Positions 13,788 to 53,667 of a stretch of DNA of 64,000 nucleotides are shown here, piece by piece (positions within the stretch are counted from its first letter, which is position 1; every line of letters starts with the position of its first letter). The stretch covers positions 870,501-934,500 of the forward strand of contig CP136495.1 in assembly GCA_032768795.1 (NCBI GenBank), in the 5' to 3' direction. The position numbers and the translations under genes are program-made. Under the pieces are notes generated by a model, which did not search any database, had not been told where the DNA came from, and worked only from the letters and a program-made list of their open reading frames with translations. Source of the stretch: Tremella fuciformis (Eukaryota > Basidiomycota > Tremellomycetes > Tremellales > Tremellaceae).

Positions 13788-15008
13788 ATGCCTCGGCTTC
13801 CCATCGAGATCCTCCCAGTGATCGCTACATTTCTGCCAGCAGACGAGTCTCTCGGTACCGTCGCAGCGCTAGCGGCCGTCTCGCAGGCTGTCAATCGCGC
13901 TATCACACCCATGCTGTACTCCCACGTCCGCCTATCTAACGGCAGTGCTCTGTTGACGCATCTGCATCAGTTGATCCTCGATGAGGCTGGCGCAAAAGGC
14001 GATCAAGCCTATCTCGAACGCCCAACAAACCTACCGAATGCGCCAGCTATAGACCTCGGCTACCCAGCGTCACCATTCGAGGAATACTCCCCGACCCGAG
14101 CAGAAGATCAAGGACAAGCCCATGCAATCAACGATATAGCCCGGATCAAGAAGCTGTTCAGCCACGTCAAGACGCTCGAGATCCGCACGCTCAACCTCCT
14201 CCCTCATCCGTCCGCTTACACCCGACTCCCTCACTCATTCCGCCCGTTCCCATCTTTGGAGACGCTCGTCATCTCACAACACCTGCTCGAAGCTCTGGGG
14301 CAACGCAGAGCAGAGCTGGAGCTTACACGCCTGCCGTGCGATCCCCAGCGGCCAAGCGACAGCCCCCTCAGCCTGCCGATGATGATGGAAGAAGCCGGCT
14401 TCTTTGCGTTCCTCGCCCCTCGCAGAGTCATCATCGACGGCCCAGTCGAGCCCTCGGAGACCGTCCATGTACTCGGACACGGAACGCGCGACCGCCCTCA
14501 TCCCCTCATCTGTCTTGCCCTCGGTCGCGCACTCCGCTCGCTCGCCTCTCTGCGAGAAGCTGGACAAAGAGTCGAGCTCGAAATCCACGGTTGGCGCAAT
14601 GCAGACCTCCTGTTTGGTCTGTGGGAGTCTACGGCCAAGTACGTTGCCAACTTCGACGCGGCGCCAGAGACATGGTGGAGGTGGAAGGCGCGGCTCGTCA
14701 TGCTGCCTCCTATCGCAGCGGACGACGGGGAGAAATGGGCGCGCGCCATGTCGACCATCGCGAACACGCTCTGTCGGATTGGCCACACTAGGCTTCCCCC
14801 GAACCGGCTGTTGGAGGTGCAGCATGTCTTCCTGCCACAGGAGAGACTGAGCTCGAGGGAACAATTCGAGTTGATGCATGGGTGGATGGAGAAGGCGTTG
14901 GTGGCTGGGACGCTGTTTGATTATTACCCAGAGGTGGCAACGATGATCAAGGACGTCGGGGGAAAGCCGAGGATGCCCTCCCTGGACATGCGACCGGCGG
15001 AAGGTTAA
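13788..15008 (+). CDS. F-box-like protein A (paralog of A' at 18283)
   Basis: 406-codon intronless gene. The start MPRLPIEILPVIATFL is chosen because the paralog A' begins at the same position (MPSLPLELFPLVAAVL). The first 50 residues resemble a degenerate F-box: LP-x-E-hydrophobic core, then LAAVSQAVNRAITPMLYSHV. Conserved with A' are SFRPFPSLETLVISQ, FLAPRRVIIDGPVEPSE, ELEIHGWRNADLLFGLWE and WWRWKARLVMLPPI. No leucine-rich or kelch repeats are visible. By family analogy it would be an adaptor of an SCF ubiquitin ligase, but this is inference and the partner domain is unknown. It lies tail-to-tail with gene B, stops 79 bases apart. Confidence 0.8.
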   Translation: MPRLPIEILPVIATFLPADESLGTVAALAAVSQAVNRAITPMLYSHVRLSNGSALLTHLHQLILDEAGAKGDQAYLERPTNLPNAPAIDLGYPASPFEEYSPTRAEDQGQAHAINDIARIKKLFSHVKTLEIRTLNLLPHPSAYTRLPHSFRPFPSLETLVISQHLLEALGQRRAELELTRLPCDPQRPSDSPLSLPMMMEEAGFFAFLAPRRVIIDGPVEPSETVHVLGHGTRDRPHPLICLALGRALRSLASLREAGQRVELEIHGWRNADLLFGLWESTAKYVANFDAAPETWWRWKARLVMLPPIAADDGEKWARAMSTIANTLCRIGHTRLPPNRLLEVQHVFLPQERLSSREQFELMHGWMEKALVAGTLFDYYPEVATMIKDVGGKPRMPSLDMRPAEG

Positions 15009-15086
15009 GACCACATAGGAGACGTATACGTGAAGAAGGTATGTACAGTACAACATTGTGACTATGCTCGTTTCCGGCCGGTCCCC

Positions 15087-16438
15087 TCACTTGCTGCCGC
15101 AGCAGCAGCACGCTCTTCCTTCCTCTCTCCTCACCACCGCAAACCGCCTCAGCACGTCCTTGCGTATCGCCTCTTTCGATTGATCGGACAAATCGTCTGG
15201 CTTGCGACCAGCAATATCCTCTTGGATCCTGCGAGAGAGCTTCTCGTTCCACGCCACACCTGGCCTGTCCTCCCCTTTCGTGCCCTCGACCACGGGAAAA
15301 TGAGCGCTCAGCATGGATACATGTCTTGAGGTTTCGGTTTCTTCCGCACGACTGCCGCTTGATCCCGATGGAGGTGGATCTCCGAGCATCGTTGCAAGCA
15401 TCCGGACCACAAGGGGATTCCCGTATGCGGGGTAGGAGAAGTGGACGTCGACCCTCGGGGCAGCATAATACCGAATGATTGGGAACTCGACGTGGTGGAA
15501 CGTCGCGCTGTACAGCGAGTCCCAATGCGGCAAGTCGTCGGACGTGGGGTCGGCCCGTGCGCGTTGCCACCCGTCGTACCACTCCACCGTGCTCTTGTAT
15601 AGCCTCTCAATACCTTCCCAGCGCGCAATCTCGCTTGCCGGGGAATCTTCTTGGACTTCACCTCAGTCTCGGTCTCCCGGCAGTCGACGCACATGGTGTG
15701 CGGCCGCATCATGAGTTGGAGACCGGCCAAGAGCGGGTGTCGCATGCCAGAGTTGGCCCTCCCCCATAATCTCAACGTGTCGATCGCGCCCGGGCCGAGC
15801 TGGACACCAGAGGCGATTGGGAGGAGCAAGGCTGGCTCGAGGGCGCGGCATGCATTGCACAGGTCGGCACAGTCGAACCAGTAGGGTACGTCGTCGATGA
15901 TGACGAGCCGCGTGAGGGAGAAGAGGAGAAGCTTGCGCCGGGATGCGCGGTCCGGTCTGGCGAGTGCACGCAGACGTTCTGCTATGCTATTGATCTCCTC
16001 GGTGTCGGGTACTGAGAGGGGAGCTTGGGCGTCGTCGTCGACGGGGCAAGGCGAGGGGGAGCCCAAGTCGCTGAAGTCGTGCAGCGAGCGATCTGGGCGC
16101 TGCACGAGTCGGCTCTCGTCAGCCGCCCACCTCGGCAGCCCAACAAGCAGTCTGGCGAACGTTCGAGCGGTGATGCGTAAGGTGCCGTAGAGCTTTTGCG
16201 CGGCTACTTCACGCAGATGCTTGACGCACAGCAGATTGACCAGCGTTCCCAGTGCTCCGATATCATGCAGGATATTGACGATGATCTGGAAGACGTCGGT
16301 CGGGAGACGTGGTGATAGCTCTGGCTCAGGCCCCTGGCAGCCACTCGTAGTCGTGCCGATGAAGTCCCGGACCCAGCTGGGCGAACATGCAGGAGCGTTT
16401 GCCTGGCGCATCCCCTGCTCAACGGTCCCACTCGGCAT
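15087..16438 (-). CDS. F-box-like protein B (paralog of B' at 19533); frame break or intron near 15606-15661
   Basis: Starts MPSGTVEQGMRQ; the F-box-like block is SPRLPTDVFQIIVNIL followed by LLCVKHLREVAAQKLYGTL. Shared with B' are LLVGLP, GMRHPLLAGLQLMM (B' GARHPLVRALEIML), the block around DLPHWDSLYSATFHHVEF, and the very C-terminus CCCCGSK (B' CLCCGKK). The two halves are in different frames. A GT-AG intron 15606-15661 (56 nt, weak branch site) would join 15662-16438 to 15087-15605 and give 431 codons, close to 429 in B'. Alternatively a one-base shift near 15650 keeps a helical segment ASEIARWEGIERLYK that looks coding, which would make this a fresh pseudogene. Convergent with gene A. Confidence 0.7.
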
Positions 16439-18282
16439 CGTGAGAGGGAAAACTGATGCGGTGAGGTGAATATGAAAGCACGCGTAAATGAAAGTCGTGG
16501 TGGCTGACGAGAGAGCTTGTGCACCGTGAAGTGGCACGACGCAATGCCACAGTTCCTCCATGTGAAACTCCATTGGCCATTGGCGATGCTGCGCGTGCCC
16601 TCAGGTTGAAGAACAGCTTCCACGCTGGTCAGTGTAGCCGCACCTCCTCGACGGGTGCCCTACAGTGCCTGACCAAACTGTAGGCTTATTCCCTGCATTT
16701 CGAAGCTCGGGCTCCAAGTGCTTAGACCATGATCTCCCTGGTATGTATCCGGTCCGTTGCACTGCGCAGCTCAAAGTGCGTCTGAGGAAGAAAGACGCAA
16801 ACAGATATGCCGCTGGCAGCCCTGCGCCTTTTTCTGTGCTTTTCGCACGGACCTTTGAATACAGGTGCTCAGTGGATGAGGTGGCTCTTGGCAGCACTTC
16901 ACGCGGGAAGCTGATCAGAGGACCAATGTCATCAGCAAAACACCTTGCACCCCTAAGATTACTCGAAGCGTGACATTCCGCCGAAGAATGAGATGCATGG
17001 GAGCGAGACAGTCTACACGTTGGAATTTCATCACTGAGAGATATCTTGCTCCCACGCCTCCAAGGATCTCCCCGTAGTGGTGCTCAGAGTGAGGTACAAA
17101 GATTCAGCTCTGCTACGATAGATTGTTCTGCCCTCGCCGGTAATTTGCACTGAGCTGCTGAGCTGTTGATCACTCTGCCACTTGGTACACGCAACATTCC
17201 CAGTGAAGGCTTCGCCGCAAAGGACCTGAAATGCCTGTTACAGACCGTTGGGCCTATCACCACGGAGCTCAAATTGGATAGGTGGATCGAAGTGCGCCGT
17301 GAGCACGCCCCGCTCTGACGAGGAGTCCTTCACTAGGAGCCCGCCTCCTGCTGCGGCGGCTTCAACTTCGACGGGACGATGTCCCGGAGCCATAAAACTC
17401 TCAGACCTGAAGAGCGCGGCCAGGACATCACTGTTTAACCGACTTTGCCCATTATTCCAGGTGACGGTGGCATTTCCGGGTCGCTGAGAGGAATGAAAAC
17501 GGTACTGCGGGGAGGGGTAGGTAGGGTCTCCCTGCCTCACCTGTGTGAGGGAAAAGCGAGAACGAAAAGGAACGCTGAGACTTGGAGAGAAGCAGCGATG
17601 ACCAGAAGAGAGTGAGCATCCGAAGCGACCACCGCAGTAGCTTGGCGTAAAAACGAGTGACCTTATGCTTGAGCCATCGTGGGGGTCATTGACCATCTCC
17701 ACGTCCACTAGAGACCTTCCGTCTTGATCAAAACGTGGGATGGTCAGACTGTGAGGGTCGAGAGGCATGGTCAGGTGCTTGTCACGGAGTGGTACAGTAG
17801 TTGGACGAGCTTTGTTGAGTTCGGAAGTGAACCAAAGTTTGCCACTGCACAGCATGTGCGACGAGTTCGGTGCTCGCAAACACCTACAGCGAGATCGTTC
17901 CTTTGAACCCCGAAAGGAAATGCCTCCTCTCGTCCTTGTCGCGCACTCGATCTCACTCATGATGCAAGCGCGCAGGACCAGAAAAGAAGCTCTCTCTCCC
18001 TCTCGCATGCAGCCACGGTATTTCCCGAAGACCGAGTCTTGAGTGCATGGTCTGAGGGGTGATAGGTTCAAAGCAGAATGGCGACTGACGCATGTTCAGG
18101 CCACAAGCGAAGGCTCTGATGCTCCCTTTTAGCATATGGAAGTCCTGGGCATCCCCTTTCACCTGACCTCCATTCGACATTCGAGACACTCCCCTGCGCT
18201 CGTCAGGGAGCGCATCCTGGCTGTTTGCCGAGCATTCACCCATAAACAACCTCTCTGCGTGCATCTCGCCAACTGCAAACTC
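16439..18282. other. Spacer between the two F-box-like gene pairs
   Basis: Separates the divergent starts of B (-) and A' (+). A minus-strand frame at 17238-18071 has two stretches that look coding (SLTIPRFDQDGRSLVDVEM; NSDVLAALFRSESFM) separated by a possible intron ending at about 17485; no homologous domain was recognised, so it is not called as a gene. Confidence 0.45.
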
Positions 18283-19437
18283 ATGCCTTCTCTTCCCCTG
18301 GAGCTCTTCCCGCTCGTCGCCGCGGTCTTGGCCGGCGACGGTGACTTGAACACTGTGGCCATGTTGGCGCGGGTGTCCAAGGAGGCACACCGCCTCGTCA
18401 CGCCGGTTCTGTACGCCAGCATCAAGCTGCAAGATGATAGCCCACTTTTGGAATGGCTGCATTGCATGACCAGAGCCGCTGCCAACGACCCCAAGGACTC
18501 GGCCTCCTCCAAGACCCTCGACCACCTGCATGAACTTGAAGCGGAGAGAGTCCAGCGCATCATCTCCCTTTTCCACCAAGTCAAGACTGTTGAGATCCGC
18601 ACACTTCGCCTCTTCCCAGACACGAAAGTCGGTTCTCAGCTCCCCGACTCTTTCAGGCCCTTCCCCAATCTCAAAAACCTGACCATCTCCCAAGACTTCA
18701 TCGAAGCTCTCGGCAGACGCAAAGATGTTCTCGCAGACGCCTTGATTCAGTCCGGCCCGCCTCCGGCACGACCTCCGGCCTCCTTCAGACGCCTCATCGA
18801 GCACTCACGCTTCTTCTCTTTCCTCGCCCCGAGCAGAGTCACGATCGAGGGACCAGTCGAGCCGTCTGACCTCGTGCACATACCGAAGAAGCATGATCGG
18901 CTCGAACCGTGGATCTCCCTGTCTCTCGGTCTGGCGCTCTGGTCGCTCCCCTCACTCGACCCAAATCTTCCGCCAGTGCAGCTCGAGATCCGTGGTTGGC
19001 GCAATGCGGACTTCGTCTATGGGATATGGGAGGCAACTTCCAAACTCAAGAGCGACAGGGACCCCAATCAGCCAGACGACCAGTGGTGGCGGTGGAAGAC
19101 CCGACTCACGATGCTCCCCCACATTCCGCTCGATGACGGTGGCACGTGGCAGCTGGCGATGCGCACGGTCGTGAATGTCCTTGCGCGTATGGGGTCCATC
19201 AGGATCCCGCCACCTGGGGTGTTGGAGGTGCGCCATGCTCGCTCCGAGGGTGAGGGTGCGGCTGAGAGCAGCGAGAGGCAGGCGGTTCAGATGATGCAAC
19301 TACACATGGAGAGGGCGATTCACAAGGGGACCATGTTCATGTTTTATCCCCGAGTGGCAAGGAAGATGGTCAAGCTGTACGAAGGTGACGGCGGGGTCAT
19401 TCCGAGACTTCCAGCTCTGTCCTTCAGAGCGGCCTAA
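18283..19437 (+). CDS. F-box-like protein A' (paralog of A)
   Basis: 384-codon intronless gene beginning MPSLPLELFPLVAAVL, with the F-box-like continuation MLARVSKEAHRLVTPVLYAS. It follows gene A in the same block order: SFRPFPNLKNLTISQ, FLAPSRVTIEGPVEPSD, LEIRGWRNADFVYGIWE, WWRWKTRLTMLPHI, then PPPGVLEVRHA. Similarity is spread over the full length, indicating an old duplication rather than a recent copy. The frame remains open to 18136, but the upstream part has no counterpart in A. It is tail-to-tail with B' (stops 96 bases apart), repeating the A/B arrangement. SCF-adaptor role is inferred from the N-terminal domain only. Confidence 0.8.
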   Translation: MPSLPLELFPLVAAVLAGDGDLNTVAMLARVSKEAHRLVTPVLYASIKLQDDSPLLEWLHCMTRAAANDPKDSASSKTLDHLHELEAERVQRIISLFHQVKTVEIRTLRLFPDTKVGSQLPDSFRPFPNLKNLTISQDFIEALGRRKDVLADALIQSGPPPARPPASFRRLIEHSRFFSFLAPSRVTIEGPVEPSDLVHIPKKHDRLEPWISLSLGLALWSLPSLDPNLPPVQLEIRGWRNADFVYGIWEATSKLKSDRDPNQPDDQWWRWKTRLTMLPHIPLDDGGTWQLAMRTVVNVLARMGSIRIPPPGVLEVRHARSEGEGAAESSERQAVQMMQLHMERAIHKGTMFMFYPRVARKMVKLYEGDGGVIPRLPALSFRAA

Positions 19438-19532
19438 GGTACATGTGTGCATGCTATCAGGACATGTATATGTAGACTGTGGCCATGAAGAGACTTGCTT
19501 TGCATAAGAGACCTTACCATCTCGAACACCCC

Positions 19533-20822
19533 TTATTTCTTGCCGCAACAGAGGCAAGCCTCTGTTTCGTCCGTGCGCTGTACTAGGACCCGTCGACACA
19601 TGTCCAACCAAATTTCTTCTGACAGTCGTTCCTGCTCAGAGGCATCTAGCTCGTCGTGGCCCTCCTCCTCCTCTGTCTCCTCCACGACCAAAGCAACCAC
19701 TTGCTCATGCCATGCCACACTTGGGTTGGATGGAGACATGGTGTCTTTGGGGACGGTGAAAGAGGCATAGAGGTCGGCGACGAGGCCGGGATAGTCGGGC
19801 GCATCGAGCCACTCATCTATGGGGAGCATAGGCGGTCGCCTACCCAACATCGTTCTGATCGTTGTGGTCACGCCGCTCGATTCATAATCGGTGGTCCCGA
19901 AGAAAAGATATATTCTGGTCGCAGGATAGTGGCCAAGTTCGGAGGAGTCGAGGTTGTGATGGGTAGCATGTCCGAGCCCTGGCCAGCGCGGCAGATCGTC
20001 AAGGATGTGGTCCTTTCGACTGTTGACGAAGGTGCTCCATTTGCGGTCCAAGTACAAGTCGACCACGGACGGACAGGACCCCAACCAGAATGGCACACCG
20101 CTTCGTGATGCCTGCTCCATTCGGCTCTCGTGAAACATGTCTCCGCCAATGGTCTTGGTGTGGTCGATGCAAATCTCGCCAGGTGCTAACATGATCTCGA
20201 GAGCACGGACGAGTGGGTGCCGAGCGCCGCCGTTCCGATCTCTCCAGTCACTGAATCGGTCATATATGCCGACACCAAGCTGGAGGCAGTACACGTGCGG
20301 GAACAGCAGCGAGTCGCGTTCGAGATGCGAGCATGCGTGAAGCAGATCCGCGCAGAAGCGCGCTGGGGGAACGTCGACAATGACCAGATCGCGCGTCAGT
20401 TGGAAGAGGGCTCTCTTTGGGCCCGAAAGTCGATCCTTGGACTTCGTGGCGTCCGCCTGGCAAGGATCTTCGCATACGGATCCGCCGTGCGCGGGAGGCT
20501 CCGAGGCTTCATCCGCTTCGCCTTCGTCTTCAGAAGGGCAAGGGCAATCGGGCCAGTCCATGTGAGCTCCAGGCTTCCGAGCGGGTCGCTTGATCAGTCG
20601 CCGACGCTCTTGGGCCGAGGCTGACGGTAACCCGACAAGGAGTTTGGCGATAGTGCGGTTTCGTATGTGCAGGGTGTGGTAGAGGAGTGGCGCCGCCAGC
20701 TCACGGAGTTGCTGAACGCAGAGCAAAGCCGCCAAAGTCGCTTGTGCCTGATCTTCTGCAAGTATTTGCACAACCATAGTGAGGACCTCCATCGGGAGGC
20801 GAGGGGACGAGCTCGAACTCAT
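19533..20822 (-). CDS. F-box-like protein B' (paralog of B)
   Basis: 429-codon intronless gene. Start MSSSSSPRLPMEVL aligns the F-box-like core with gene B; the frame is open further upstream to 21038 but that part is not shared. F-box-like: LPMEVLTMVVQIL then LLCVQQLRELAAPLLYHTL. There is an acidic linker (SEDEGEADEASEP) and the shared blocks GARHPLVRALEIML and ILDDLPRWPGLGHATHH. The C-terminal tail is Glu-rich (VVEETEEEEGHDEL) and ends in CLCCGKK, the same cysteine cluster as in B. Intact, unlike B, so it is the better reference for this subfamily. Function beyond a possible SCF adaptor is unknown. Confidence 0.8.
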   Translation of the reverse strand: MSSSSSPRLPMEVLTMVVQILAEDQAQATLAALLCVQQLRELAAPLLYHTLHIRNRTIAKLLVGLPSASAQERRRLIKRPARKPGAHMDWPDCPCPSEDEGEADEASEPPAHGGSVCEDPCQADATKSKDRLSGPKRALFQLTRDLVIVDVPPARFCADLLHACSHLERDSLLFPHVYCLQLGVGIYDRFSDWRDRNGGARHPLVRALEIMLAPGEICIDHTKTIGGDMFHESRMEQASRSGVPFWLGSCPSVVDLYLDRKWSTFVNSRKDHILDDLPRWPGLGHATHHNLDSSELGHYPATRIYLFFGTTDYESSGVTTTIRTMLGRRPPMLPIDEWLDAPDYPGLVADLYASFTVPKDTMSPSNPSVAWHEQVVALVVEETEEEEGHDELDASEQERLSEEIWLDMCRRVLVQRTDETEACLCCGKK

Positions 20823-41801: not shown

Positions 41802-42890
41802 TCAGGGGTCGAGCGCTGACAAGAGGGAGACAGGGCCCAGCAAGTCCTCGTCCCGGATATTGTCCACATCTGTGCCCGTCCGCGCCAGCGCCTCTCGCGC
41901 CACGATCAATACGTGCTTCTTCACGCTCTCCTTGCGGCTGGTGGCTTGCTCTGAAGTCTCTTCGCGGAGAGTGTCGCGAATCTCTACTATGCCCGAGATG
42001 CCCATCCGTTCACCTGGAGTGTCGTGGAACGATCTTGCGGCAGTGACGAGCGCGGTCGAGAATCCTTCTCGCGCCTGTCGCGCGGGCTCAGAATCTCCGT
42101 CGTCAGGGAAAGGAGTTACGATCCGATAGTCTTGGCCTTCGGGGTCGCCCTCCCAGTCGTACAAGGCGATCAGCTGGAAGTAGGCATAGAGGGTCGGAGT
42201 CTCGATTATGATGGTCTTCAACTCGAATGAGCCGCCCAGCACGTACCGCATCAGTCCGCGGTAGACCTCGATAGCATGTCGATTCGCCTCGCGGTGTTGT
42301 TCAGCGATCGATCCTGTCCGTGCTTGGGGGATCCATTCGATGCAGACCTCCTTGGGCACGAAGTGGGCGATGACAAGTGAGAGATTCAGGTCTGTTTCGG
42401 CGGACTGATGCTCCTCGCGGACATGTGAGATTCGAAGGGTTTTGAGGAGTTTGAAGAGCGCATTTCCCGGGATGGGCGGCTCATTACATCTTTCCGAGTT
42501 AGACAGAAGCGTCGGGTGGTAGAGCTCGACCGAAAGGACCTGCGAGCAAGCGGCGCGAATACGGCGGTGTCGGTCGTTCTCCCAAGCGACCAACGCCGGT
42601 GGGTGTAGGATGGAGTGCTCGTCTTGCCCTTCAAGACCTTCAAGACCTTCAAGACCTTGAGAAGCTTCAGTGAGAGGCTCCGAGAAGAACCTGGCAAGCT
42701 GTCGTGGCGAGTCGAAACGCAAGTGTCGATAGAGGGGCGGTGTTGCTAAGGCGTAGGAAGCCTTGTCGAGTCGTTGAATCCTGGCGAGAGTCTGGGTATC
42801 CCTTAGACCCGCCAACGCTCGAACGACGACGACTAGGAGCTCGACTGGGAGCGAAAGTGGTGGGCGTGCCGCCTCATCCATCGTCGGCAT
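41802..42890 (-). CDS. F-box-like protein D
   Basis: 362-codon intronless gene. The start MPTMDEAARPPLSLPVEL is chosen because the F-box-like core LSLPVELLVVVVRAL follows at once; the frame is open upstream to 43094 without conserved features. The second half of the domain, ARIQRLDKASYALATPPLYRHL followed by SPRQLARFF, parallels gene E (VSKEGYRVVTPHVYRY, ERLERLF) and genes A/A' (VSKEAHRLVTPVLY). The rest has segments LFKLLKTLRISHV and TIIIETPTLYAYFQLIALYDW, suggestive of leucine-rich-repeat-like strands. It sits head-to-tail downstream of gene E. Role as an SCF adaptor is inference. Confidence 0.72.
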   Translation of the reverse strand: MPTMDEAARPPLSLPVELLVVVVRALAGLRDTQTLARIQRLDKASYALATPPLYRHLRFDSPRQLARFFSEPLTEASQGLEGLEGLEGQDEHSILHPPALVAWENDRHRRIRAACSQVLSVELYHPTLLSNSERCNEPPIPGNALFKLLKTLRISHVREEHQSAETDLNLSLVIAHFVPKEVCIEWIPQARTGSIAEQHREANRHAIEVYRGLMRYVLGGSFELKTIIIETPTLYAYFQLIALYDWEGDPEGQDYRIVTPFPDDGDSEPARQAREGFSTALVTAARSFHDTPGERMGISGIVEIRDTLREETSEQATSRKESVKKHVLIVAREALARTGTDVDNIRDEDLLGPVSLLSALDP

Positions 42891-43148
42891 AGCCAGCTGT
42901 GCAGCGAGGAATGTGAAGAGGAAAGGAAACAAAGAGACAAAGAGACGTTGGCTGATTGGGCCAAAATGACTTGAACCCTGAAAGGAAGCATAGTGCACGG
43001 GAGTTCGTTCATTCAAAGTCATATCGTAAACGCGGCTGTACATACACACTTTCACAATGTTATGGCAGTTCATCTCAAGAACGCCTAGATGCACACACTG
43101 CCTGACCCCATTTCATTGAAGACGAGAGCGACAGTCTGGCAAAGATTG

Positions 43149-44579
43149 TCAGATGCACGAGTGGCCGGTTCGCCGAGAGACCTCGGTTGAACATGAAGGG
43201 CACTGCGGTATCTCCCCGTCATCCCCGAAACGCACATGCTTGACGGCCATTCGACCATCCTCTGCAGTGACAAACTGGGGAGCCTGGCGCAGGACTGCCT
43301 GGGAGACACCCTGACTGTAAGTTTCCATGAGTCGTAGGTCGTATAGTCGATCACCGCTCGTCGTGGTGTTGTAGATGTGGACGTCCGTATCGTGCTTTTG
43401 GCCGTGAGGGTGGCCCCGATCCAGCATTGCATTGACGGCAATACTGAGCTGAAGGAAAGGGCGGAGAAGCGCTACCAGATCTTCGTTTGCGGTGGGGAGG
43501 GCGAGGGAGACATGCACTTTGGGAACTCTTCCTACTACGCAGCAGATGTGCGAGATGAGTCTGTAGCTCATCTCTTGAGCGTGAATCCGCACAGTCTGGA
43601 GTCGGATATGCGGTTGGACTGGATATACGCGCAATAGGACGATGGGGTGTAGTGATAAGGAGGATGGTTCAAGGTCTCCAGGGGTGGCCGGGGAGTCTTC
43701 GAAACAGCAGTATCTGGGATCCAGACGACACAGAAGCGCTTGGAGACACGCGAATTCGGTGATCTGTGGGACCGACGCAGCCTCGCGATAGGCCGTCCCG
43801 GTCAGAGACTGTGCAACGGCCGATTGGGTGATAGTGATACTGTCGAGCCGAGGGAATGGACGTTCGGTACACAGCAGCCACGACGCGAGGAATGTGGCCA
43901 ACATGGGCCGCGTCGCAGTCGTGGCGATGGTGGAGAATCGTAAGGTGATCTTTTCGACCAGCCGGAAGGCGTTACGGACACGCTGCAAATCGTCCGGGGT
44001 CCACCGTGAGGTACGCAGTGACTCGTCCTCCGACGAAGTCGTGCCCTGTTGAGCGAGCGGCCTCTCTTCCACCTCGTCGCCGCCTGAGGGGGCACCTGTC
44101 AAACCAAGCCCGATGGCAAGATTTTGGAGTGTCGAGACTAAACGATCTACGGGTAAACCGGAGACGGAAGACGTTGATTCTAACGCCCGAATACGACTTG
44201 CCTCTCGCTTGACCTCGTAGTGAGCCTGAGTGCGATCCATCTGCACCCTGCAGAAACCGTTGGATTTGATAAAGTCCAACCCGTGATCTGTCAGTGCGTG
44301 CCGGTTCTCGGACTTTGCAAAGGCGAATTTGACAGTGAGAGGGCGAAACAACCGCTCTAGTCGTTCAGGCGTGTCGAGGTCGATGTATCGGTAGACGTGG
44401 GGTGTGACCACTCTGTAGCCCTCCTTGCTGACTCTCTGCAGAGCAAGGAGAGTCTTCACATCGTCGTCGGCGCAAAGGTATTCTGCAATGCAGCCAACGA
44501 GCTCTTCCGGAAAAGAGGGTGCGCCTGAGGGTGACCAGGCGGATTGCGCTATCGTGAGCGGCCCCGAATCGGGCGACAT
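43149..44579 (-). CDS. F-box-like protein E
   Basis: 476-codon intronless gene starting MSPDSGPLTIAQSAWSPSG. F-box-like region: SFPEELVGCIAEYLC, LLALQRVSKEGYRVVTPHVY, then TPERLERLFRPL. The middle contains helices and strand-like segments (VEKITLRFSTIA, RLDSITITQSAVAQSL, LQTVRIHAQEM) that could form an irregular leucine-rich repeat. The extreme C-terminus has CPSCSTEV and a final Cys, a cysteine pair reminiscent of the C-terminal clusters in B and B'. Same strand as D with 258 bases between D's start and E's stop. Family membership comes from the N-terminal domain; substrate unknown. Confidence 0.75.
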   Translation of the reverse strand: MSPDSGPLTIAQSAWSPSGAPSFPEELVGCIAEYLCADDDVKTLLALQRVSKEGYRVVTPHVYRYIDLDTPERLERLFRPLTVKFAFAKSENRHALTDHGLDFIKSNGFCRVQMDRTQAHYEVKREASRIRALESTSSVSGLPVDRLVSTLQNLAIGLGLTGAPSGGDEVEERPLAQQGTTSSEDESLRTSRWTPDDLQRVRNAFRLVEKITLRFSTIATTATRPMLATFLASWLLCTERPFPRLDSITITQSAVAQSLTGTAYREAASVPQITEFACLQALLCRLDPRYCCFEDSPATPGDLEPSSLSLHPIVLLRVYPVQPHIRLQTVRIHAQEMSYRLISHICCVVGRVPKVHVSLALPTANEDLVALLRPFLQLSIAVNAMLDRGHPHGQKHDTDVHIYNTTTSGDRLYDLRLMETYSQGVSQAVLRQAPQFVTAEDGRMAVKHVRFGDDGEIPQCPSCSTEVSRRTGHSCI

Positions 44580-51249: not shown

Positions 51250-53114
51250 CTATGCTTCCACCACATCGTCTCCCTGCTTGGGTTTCTGCTCCGGCATCTC
51301 CTCTTCATGTATCACCATCAGCCCCAAGACGGTCACGATGGCAAAGACCAGGTTGACCACAAAGACGACGTGCAACGCGTGCTGATACGCATGTACCGCG
51401 GCCCGGCGGTCTGAGTGCTGCAGATCCCGAATCGCCGAGATGGAATGCCTGATTGTATAGATGGTCTTGGCATCCGGTCAGCGCGGTGGTCAAGAGGAGC
51501 GCAGACTTACCGCTTTGGCATGCTTGCCACGGATGAGCTGGATTAGATCGTGCTGCAGGATGGCCTGGACGATGGCGCCGGACAGAGACACGCCGAGCAC
51601 CTGGCCGGTCATGCGGAACATGTAGCTCACTGCGCGTCAGCCGAGATCCATACGCCCGACTCGTGGGACTCACTGCTAGTCGCAACAGCCCTACGCCGTC
51701 AGCTTGCCTTGGTTTGACACCATGCGACTCACGTTTCGCCCTTGCCTTGGCGGGTGACTTCGGTCATCAGCGCGACGAGCGAGCTGGTCAGCACGGCGGC
51801 ATAGCCAAATCCGGCTGGGGCGACAGTGACCCAGCTGAGCCAAGCTGGACTGTGCGCGTCCCACAGACACATCAGGACCGCGCTGATCACCATGATGAGA
51901 CCGCCACTAACGGCGCACCACCAGTAGGCTCCCGTCCGCTTCATGACCCAGCCAATAGCGACGGATCCAACAGCAATGAGGACCGAGTACGGCAGGAGAT
52001 GGGCGCCGGCGACAGAGGACGACTGGAGGCGGACGGCGGAAAAGTAAAGTGGGACGTTGTAAAGCAGGGAGAACTGATTGAAGACCATGGTAAAGGAGGT
52101 GAAGGCGACTGCGAGTGGGGTGCGGCGGGTGAGGAAGCGCAAGGGCAAGATGGGCTCTGGCGCGTAGTACCCCTCGACAAGGACGAAGAGGCATGCAAAG
52201 ATCATGGCGGTGCAGAGCAAGGCGATGATTTGGGGATGAGTCCACGGGTAGTCGGTACCGTCCGAGCGGGCCTCGGACGTCTTGAGTGAGACGCCCAGGA
52301 GGAGTGTGCCGATGGCAACGACGAGTGTGAGCGAACCAAGATAGTCGATACGCCTGATCTTTGCTCGCCAGCCTGTGCTCTGCGGATCGACAGCGCTGGG
52401 AGGCGGAGTCGACGTGCCAGTCGAGGCCGGGGTCGGTGGTTTGACGGGCAGTTGGACGCCGCGGAGGGTATGGAAGATGCCTGTACCGCACACAATCATC
52501 ATGGGCAGCTGGAGCCAGAACGCCGGGCGCCAGCCGAGACTATCCGCGACCAAGCCACCCAGAGGCCCTCCAAGCGCCCCGCCGAGACCGAAAGCGATAT
52601 TCGCATATCCCTGGAAGAGCCCGCGATAGCGCAGGCTGACGAGATCAGTCATGATGACCGATCCGAGGCTCTGGACACCGCCGCCGCCCATCCCAGCTAC
52701 GCACCGGGCGACAATGAGGAATCGCATGCTCGGTGCGACGGCGCACAGGAGGGTGCCGAACGTGAACAGGGACAGGCCGATGAGATAGGCGTTGCGCCGC
52801 CCGAGCAGGTCGGAGAGGCGGCCGTATATGGGCGTAAAGCAGCATAGCGAGAGCAGGTAGGCCGTGCCAAGCCAAGAGGCCTGGTTGGAGGCGTGGAAGG
52901 AAGAGCCGATGTCGGACAGCAGGGTGGCCACGATCGTACCGTCCAATGCGCCGAGCAGCGTCCCTAGCCAGACGAAGATGCATACCGACCGAAAGCGCCA
53001 TGCTGCGAGATGCGCGAGGTTGTGATGTTCTGTAGGGCCGCTTGACGAGGGAAGCAGGCGGGTCGTCTCGCTTGCTCCCACAAGTTGCGACTGTTGTCCA
53101 GGTGTGCTTGCCAT
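51250..53114 (-). CDS. Major facilitator superfamily transporter, DHA2 type
   Basis: 577-codon integral membrane protein with about 14 predicted helices. Exons 51733-53114, 51674-51690 (17-nt micro-exon), 51511-51629, 51250-51465; introns 42, 44 and 45 nt, all in phase. Family motifs: WLGTLLGALDGTIVATLL in TM1, YGRLSDLLGRRNAYLIG (MFS motif A), ARCVAGMGGGGVQSLGSVI and FGLGGALGGPLGG (motif C-like), and after the micro-exon SYMFRMTGQVLGVSLSGA. The N-terminal tail has RLLPSSS, a possible dileucine-type signal, consistent with vacuolar basic-amino-acid permeases (Vba) or drug exporters; substrate cannot be decided. The cytosolic C-terminus is acidic. Confidence 0.9.
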
Positions 53115-53667
53115 CTTGCCTGACGACGAGTGTCTTTATGATCTTGACAAATGCTGGCCTTTGCTACATGCCTCTCGCTATATGGTCATCGTTGTGGGCG
53201 AAATCCGACTCGTCTGTCACCAGTAATCTCGTTCGCCCGGAGATCATCGGCACGTGATATCATCAAATGCATGCTTCTCGTGATGAGAATACGGGCGATA
53301 TGCACAAGAAGAGGTCATCAGAGGCAATGCAGATGCAGCTGTAGCATCAGCTTACTCGTACCGCTCACCTTTGGCTGATTCCCGAAAGACCAGCGAGTTG
53401 TACCACGAGGCAAATCCCTGCTAGGCGGTCGTCAGTGATCTTTCGGTCGAGCTCGATGGCAGTTGCCTCAGCCAGAAAAACAGTCGAGGCAGGAGCCAGA
53501 GAAACTGTAAGAGATCTACAACAGAAAAAGTTGATGGAAAAGAGGGGGATGAAGGATGTCGACAACGAGCATCGTGCGGGGGCTGGAAGGCCATGGGCAA
53601 AGCCGAGGTGGACGCTGAGATGTCCGTGCAGAACAGAGGATTCGGCGATGGAACGGTCGTTTACAAT
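53115..53667. other. Intergenic, about 550 bases
   Basis: Between the MFS start and the stop of the acidic protein. No coding features recognised. Confidence 0.55.

What the first reader, a model, noticed from the sequence alone, without database searches (positions are those of the whole stretch)
13788..20822. Duplicated tail-to-tail pair of F-box-like genes
Genes A(+)/B(-) and A'(+)/B'(-) have the same order, orientation and tight convergent spacing (stops 79 and 96 bases apart). A resembles A' and B resembles B', but A does not obviously resemble B beyond the F-box-like start. The pair was therefore duplicated as a unit and both partners retained through substantial divergence. That suggests the two proteins, or the convergent arrangement itself (overlapping 3' UTRs, antisense control), matter together. 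A linked functional pair, such as adaptor plus regulator, is speculation.
Basis: partly seen in the sequence, partly recalled or inferred. Interest (0 to 1): 0.75.

Follow-up and report, generated by a model that had tools for sequence, protein, structure and literature searches.

The report
Duplicated F-box-like gene pair, cysteine-tailed family
Two neighbouring pairs of F-box-like genes really are copies of one another, but they belong to a larger family that keeps duplicating side by side, in which most members, including one partner of each pair, end in a shared cysteine motif of unknown use.

Summary
A/A' (41% identical end to end) and B/B' (36%) are two paralogous pairs in the same tail-to-tail order; A and B share mainly a ~53-residue F-box-like start. 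One correction: B is not an intact frame. It shifts between about 15,690 and 15,600, and none of 54 candidate GT-AG introns has a usual branch-point motif.

Block duplication is the best reading. But A and B belong to one family of 13 clear members in this 28.1-Mb genome, two more of them in the window (C 41802-42890, D 43149-44579). Four other adjacent sets lie on one strand and two members stand alone, so convergence is not the rule.

Unreported feature: 9 of 13 members, B and B' included, carry CxxC in the last 25 residues, 8 of these 9 within the last 10. In a blind alignment only three columns are cysteine-rich: this pair and one mid-protein cysteine. A and A' lack all three.

Best explanation: fast-evolving SCF substrate adaptors born by local duplication. 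Most novel open reading: a metal- or redox-dependent adaptor family, analogous to FBXL5. The window genes stay below Pfam's F-box cut-offs, and structure models were too poor to use.

The parts
13788..15008 (+). gene A, F-box-like protein, 406 aa, no cysteine tail
   Evidence: single open frame; 41% to A', 68% to P0001
13788..13946 (+). F-box-like start of A (53 residues shared with the B kind)
   Evidence: PF12937 at E 0.023, below cut-off
15663..16438 (-). gene B, 5' frame piece (F-box-like start and middle)
   Evidence: 43% to B'
15087..15662 (-). gene B, 3' frame piece in another frame
   Evidence: 31% to B'; frame changes between about 15690 and 15600 with no usual intron
15099..15110 (-). 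cysteine tail of B (CCCC, then GSK and stop)
15689..15691 (-). mid-protein cysteine of B
   Evidence: alignment column 483
18283..19437 (+). gene A', F-box-like protein, 384 aa, no cysteine tail
19533..20822 (-). gene B', F-box-like protein, 429 aa
19545..19556 (-). cysteine tail of B' (CLCC, then GKK and stop)
20169..20171 (-). mid-protein cysteine of B' (C218)
41802..42890 (-). gene C, further family member, 362 aa, mid cysteine but no tail
43149..44579 (-). gene D, further family member, 476 aa, upstream of C on the same strand
43191..43202 (-). cysteine tail of D (CPSC, 13 residues before the end)
15009..15086 (.). 78 bases between the convergent stops of A and B
   Evidence: no match to the A'/B' gap better than E 9.6
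19438..19532 (.). 95 bases between the convergent stops of A' and B'

Best explanation
A, A', B and B' are members of one fast-evolving family of F-box-like proteins. Each would bind Skp1 through its N-terminal ~53 residues and recruit its own substrate to an SCF ubiquitin ligase through the diverged rest (inferred). The family grows by duplication of neighbours: an old event, probably an inverted one, left an A-B pair, and that pair was later copied as a block (inferred from order, orientation and similarity). The B kind keeps the usual family build: F-box-like start, middle segment with one conserved cysteine, and a CxxC tail near the very end. The A kind has lost or never had the cysteines. 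Copies also decay: B has a frame break and a relic lies beside F. The tail-to-tail layout is most likely the frozen orientation of one duplication, not a control device.
For: Whole-length A-A' and B-B' similarity. Shared start of A and B. PF12937 (F-box-like): member F at C1:6738581 is over the cut-off in the six-frame scan (28.9 against 24.3 bits) but just under it as a full protein (23.8). 6 of 13 isolated starts match PF12937 at E <= 10, best 4.4e-7; 2 of 13 match PF00646, best 0.016. A family HMM built without H finds H at 7e-10. The next hits after family members and M include L026 (0.0012) and L020 (0.0029), both PF12937-positive; but the DNA searched was enriched for such loci, and only these two of them were found. 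Adjacent copies: D/C, J/K, H/G, F relic/F. CxxC in the last 25 residues in 9 of 13 members; among 68 distinct open frames of 300 aa or more in the DNA held, 10 end so, and 8 of those 10 are family members.
Against: Full-length A, A', both B pieces and B' match no F-box model in Pfam even at E 10. The profile of the 13 starts finds no F-box chain in the PDB. The PF12937 scan also rang, below the cut-off, in 3 of 14 control genomes, all three bacteria. Models of A and B' are poor (mean pLDDT 52.8 and 41.1), and the fold search with A gave nothing at E 0.001 or better. No Skp1 binding, expression or substrate was tested. The deep branches of the tree are unresolved.
Confidence: 0.68

Rival explanations
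1. The A-B pair is a functional unit: two adaptors, or an adaptor and its regulator, kept linked and perhaps co-regulated through overlapping 3' ends.
For: The pair was copied as a block and three of four frames are intact, with codon positions 1 and 2 more conserved than 3 (0.58/0.66/0.41 for A-A'). Close convergent stops, 78 and 95 bases. In four adjacent sets one partner has the cysteine tail and one lacks it (A/B, A'/B', C/D, J/K); in H/G both have it.
Against: B's frame is broken. The other four adjacent sets are not convergent. E and I have no second family match beside them in 11 whole-genome protein searches. No B relative was found for the data set that holds A's relative, though those searches are weak.
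Confidence: 0.15
2. B (and perhaps others) are decaying copies; the layout only reflects birth and death of duplicates and only A, A' and B' still work.
For: Frame shift in B; degraded relic with several stops next to F; B has the longer branch of the B/B' pair (1.19 against 0.53).
Against: Both frame pieces of B keep protein-level similarity to B' and the cysteine tail; codon positions 1 and 2 still exceed 3 in both pieces (0.54/0.62/0.40 and 0.46/0.55/0.37). One shift could be an assembly error.
Confidence: 0.12
3. The pairs are selfish toxin-antidote-like elements, as F-box antidotes are in Caenorhabditis tropicalis.
For: In PMC12680543 (passages read) fast-evolving, clustered F-box proteins whose N-termini have diverged beyond easy recognition act as antidotes, and a two-gene module was duplicated.
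Against: Here both genes of the pair are F-box-like; no toxin-like partner is seen. No data on presence or absence between strains.
Confidence: 0.03

Closest known systems
F-box / F-box-like proteins (Pfam PF00646, PF12937), SCF substrate adaptors
   Same: N-terminal ~50-residue segment that aligns with PF12937; member F reaches the cut-off in the six-frame scan; 6 of 13 starts match.
   Different: The window's own members stay below the cut-off; the rest of the protein matches no model convincingly.
DUF3760 (PF12586)
   Same: 5 of 13 starts match weakly, best 9.7e-5; member E 0.0017 and F 0.022.
   Different: E and F are below the curated cut-off, and their matches cover only about half of the 44-position model or less.
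FBXL5, the iron-responsive F-box/LRR adaptor
   Same: An F-box protein whose LRR domain binds a [2Fe-2S] cluster and that takes its substrate at its C-terminal end (passages in PMC12475580 and PMC7729025). That its ligand cysteines lie close to the C-terminus is recalled, not read.
   Different: No hemerythrin domain in the family; no sequence similarity shown; no metal binding shown here; LRR fold not shown.
Clustered, fast-evolving F-box genes of nematodes (ksl/kss)
   Same: Clustered duplicates, weak F-box signal (PMC12680543, passages).
   Different: 560 ksl genes in the passage seen; 13 clear members here, most with a cysteine tail.

Membership tests
F-box proteins | N-terminal F-box recognised by a curated model | tested here: inconclusive
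   Window genes: none over cut-off; no match at E 10 full-length, A 0.023 as an isolated start. Relative F over the PF12937 cut-off (28.9 bits), just under (23.8 against 24.3). 6 of 13 starts match at E <= 10, best 4.4e-7. PDB profile search found no F-box chain.
F-box proteins | binding to Skp1 and assembly into an SCF ligase | not testable with these tools
   needs binding assay or complex prediction
F-box/LRR (FBXL) proteins | leucine-rich-repeat domain after the F-box | tested here: inconclusive
   No LRR model in Pfam. The A model alternates helix and strand but mean pLDDT is 52.8 and no PDB match reaches E 0.001.
FBXL5 | N-terminal hemerythrin-like domain | tested here: not met
   no such Pfam match in A, A', the B pieces, B' or the 10 proteins
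FBXL5 | iron-sulphur cluster held by cysteines | not testable with these tools
   three cysteine-rich columns exist; metal binding untested
   Within this genome 2 of 6 adjacent sets are convergent and these two are copies of each other; E and I have no second family match beside them in 11 whole-genome protein searches. Other genomes could not be examined.

The most novel reading that the evidence does not exclude
A family of F-box-like adaptors, so far seen in this genome only apart from A's one relative, whose C-terminal CxxC tail folds back onto a cysteine in the middle of the protein and holds a metal ion, an iron-sulphur cluster or a redox switch, so that ubiquitin ligase activity depends on metal or oxidation state. 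This would be a second, independent origin of the FBXL5 principle. The A-kind members, without the cysteines, would be the insensitive partners of sensitive neighbours.
Probability: 0.18. Interest if true: 0.65.

Novelty: new variant of a known kind. Interest (0 to 1): 0.36.

Why it matters
F-box genes duplicate and diverge in many lineages, so the duplicated pair itself is ordinary. What deserves a second look is that a family whose sequence changes almost everywhere keeps three cysteines in most members, two of them near the very end of the protein. Such conservation points to one shared chemical job, metal binding or redox sensing being the obvious candidates, and it is directly testable with purified B'. 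The absence of all three cysteines in A and A' offers a natural comparison.

Tried and rejected
Convergent 3' overlap as the selected feature: not favoured, because the other adjacent sets are on one strand. An intron in B: 54 GT-AG candidates of 30-139 bases, none with CTRAY; candidates placed far downstream also clash with the frame that matches B'. Fold search with the A model: no match at E 0.001 or better among 656 at E <= 10 (50 rows shown), treated as no information; the B' model (pLDDT 41) was not searched. Protein database: A found one relative (P0001), B' only the window's own protein, the B 5' piece nothing at E 10; 7997 and 7996 candidates were scored, 4808 shared words, so absence is weak evidence. 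Papers: the listings of nine searches showed no account of this family or of an F-box family with a C-terminal CxxC; the library lacks most subscription journals. The co-occurrence of mid cysteine and tail is suggestive only: Fisher p 0.018 for 12 members, 0.052 when H is added as lacking the mid cysteine; columns were chosen after seeing the alignment and the rows are related. M (C6:665k, partial HMM match) and N (C3:1505963, found only at E 0.0885) were left out of the counts of 13; neither has the tail in the frame read. H is read as one gene from two frames that overlap on C3; its 3' piece was noticed by its tail, so without H the tail count is 8 of 12.
Full report
What was checked. The window is C6:870501-934500 of a 28,140,229-base genome in 11 contigs. 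A, A' and B' are single open frames. A and A' are 41% identical over their whole length (E 9e-93); B and B' 36% (E 6e-62) when B is read as two frame pieces. A searched against the whole genome finds only itself, A' and, weakly, the B' start. B' finds itself, both pieces of B, the start of A and weak relatives.

B is broken. The 5' piece of B (15663-16438) and the 3' piece (15087-15662) lie in different frames, and each matches B' (43% and 31%). The change must fall between about 15,690 and 15,600. A script listed 54 GT-AG stretches of 30-139 bases whose removal opens the frame; none contains CTRAY. Both pieces still show more conservation at codon positions 1 and 2 than at 3, so any lesion would be recent in evolutionary terms.

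One family, not two. Profile comparison of A, A' and P0001 against B' and three relatives aligns 53 columns at the start only. BLASTP reaches a little further, residues 2-111 of A, and A' matches D over residues 2-148 at 30%, E 2.3e-6. Searching the genome with 11 proteins in all kept returning the same set, apart from single weak hits. Thirteen clear members: A, A', B, B', C, D, E (C6:782k), F (C1:6738k), G and H (C3:2269k, 2268k), I (C3:2372k), J and K (C1:3178k, 3179k). An HMM of the start, built from twelve of them and P0001, finds H, which was not used in building, at 7e-10. H is taken as one gene from two overlapping frames, an inference. M (1.3e-5, partial match) and N are doubtful and are left out of counts. 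A decayed relic of F lies just upstream of F, with the reading split over frames and several stops.

Is it an F-box? The full-length window proteins A, A', B' and the B pieces match no F-box model in Pfam at E 10. Member F is over the PF12937 cut-off in the six-frame scan and just under it as a full protein. Of 13 isolated starts, 6 match PF12937 at E <= 10, best 4.4e-7, and A itself at 0.023. The same 13 starts as a profile find no F-box chain in the PDB. Homology is therefore likely through the family, not shown for each gene.

Arrangement. Six adjacent sets: A/B and A'/B' convergent; D/C, J/K, H/G and F relic/F on one strand. E and I have no second family match beside them in the 11 whole-genome protein searches. 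In the DNA held, about 6 kb upstream and 12 kb downstream of E hold no clear member; for I only about 1.5 kb upstream and under 100 bases downstream are held, so its surroundings rest on the genome searches alone. As A/B and A'/B' are copies of each other, convergence need have arisen only once. The tree groups B with B' (100/99) and A with P0001 (100/99) but leaves A' in an unresolved fork; the B-B' path is 1.72 changes per column, with the longer arm on B, and the drawn A-A' path about 1.18 or more. On DNA, the two matches between the units with E under 0.001 both lie inside A/A'; no match between the two stop-to-stop gaps was better than E 9.6 (same-strand comparison).

The cysteine signature. 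Nine of 13 members (B, B', D, E, F, G, H, I, K) carry CxxC within the last 25 residues, eight of them within the last 10; A, A', C and J do not. Per-protein shuffles give chances of 0.4% to 2.3% for those with the tail. H's 3' piece was noticed by its tail, so the count without it is 8 of 12. Among 68 distinct open frames of at least 300 aa in the DNA held, 10 end so, 8 of them family members. In a blind alignment of 15 rows, only 3 of 847 columns hold four or more cysteines: 9, 10 and 9. With 12 rows the three richest columns hold 8, 8 and 8, the fourth 3; in 100 shuffles of everything after the start, the third-richest column never passed 5, although the richest alone reached 8 or more in 3 of 100. 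P0001, A's relative, has a single cysteine in one tail column, a possible vestige. Most members were collected by matches outside the tail, so the tail is a largely independent trait; however, rows are related, the columns were noticed before they were tested, and the Fisher test for tail and mid cysteine together is weak (0.018, or 0.052 with H added).

Mechanism. Most likely these are SCF substrate adaptors (inferred from the start). Duplicated neighbours diverge in their substrate-binding part. The cysteines suggest a bound metal or a redox switch in the usual members and its absence in the A kind (inference). FBXL5 shows that an F-box/LRR protein can use a [2Fe-2S] cluster in its LRR domain and take its substrate at its C-terminal end (passages in PMC12475580 and PMC7729025; also PMC11126956, passages). 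FBXL5's hemerythrin domain is absent here, so this is at most a working analogy. Structure prediction gave no help: pLDDT 52.8 for A and 41.1 for B', and no PDB match at E 0.001 or better for A.

Verdict. The duplicated pair is real and ordinary for a birth-and-death gene family. The convergent layout is probably incidental. The conserved cysteine tail is the part that deserves follow-up.

Noticed in passing
window 41802-44579 (-): Two more F-box-like family members, D then C, head-to-tail with 258 bases between them; D carries a CPSC tail, C lacks it.
   Followed up: yes
L015 4203-4861 (C1:6737202-6737860): Decayed relic of gene F just upstream of F, with matches spread over frames and several stops.
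   Followed up: partly
C1:6824553-6903922 and C5:1149454-1161649: Clusters of places with PF12937 (F-box-like) matches: seven on C1, five of them on the minus strand within 15 kb, and three on C5. Those with loci showed no match to A, A', B or B'.
   Followed up: no
L078 706-2001 (C3:1505105-1506400): Open frame, cut at the locus end, with an F-box-like stretch in its first third and no cysteine tail; found only at E 0.0885 with A'.
   Followed up: partly
window 51729-53135 (-): MFS transporter frame (PF07690, E 2.9e-47).
   Followed up: no
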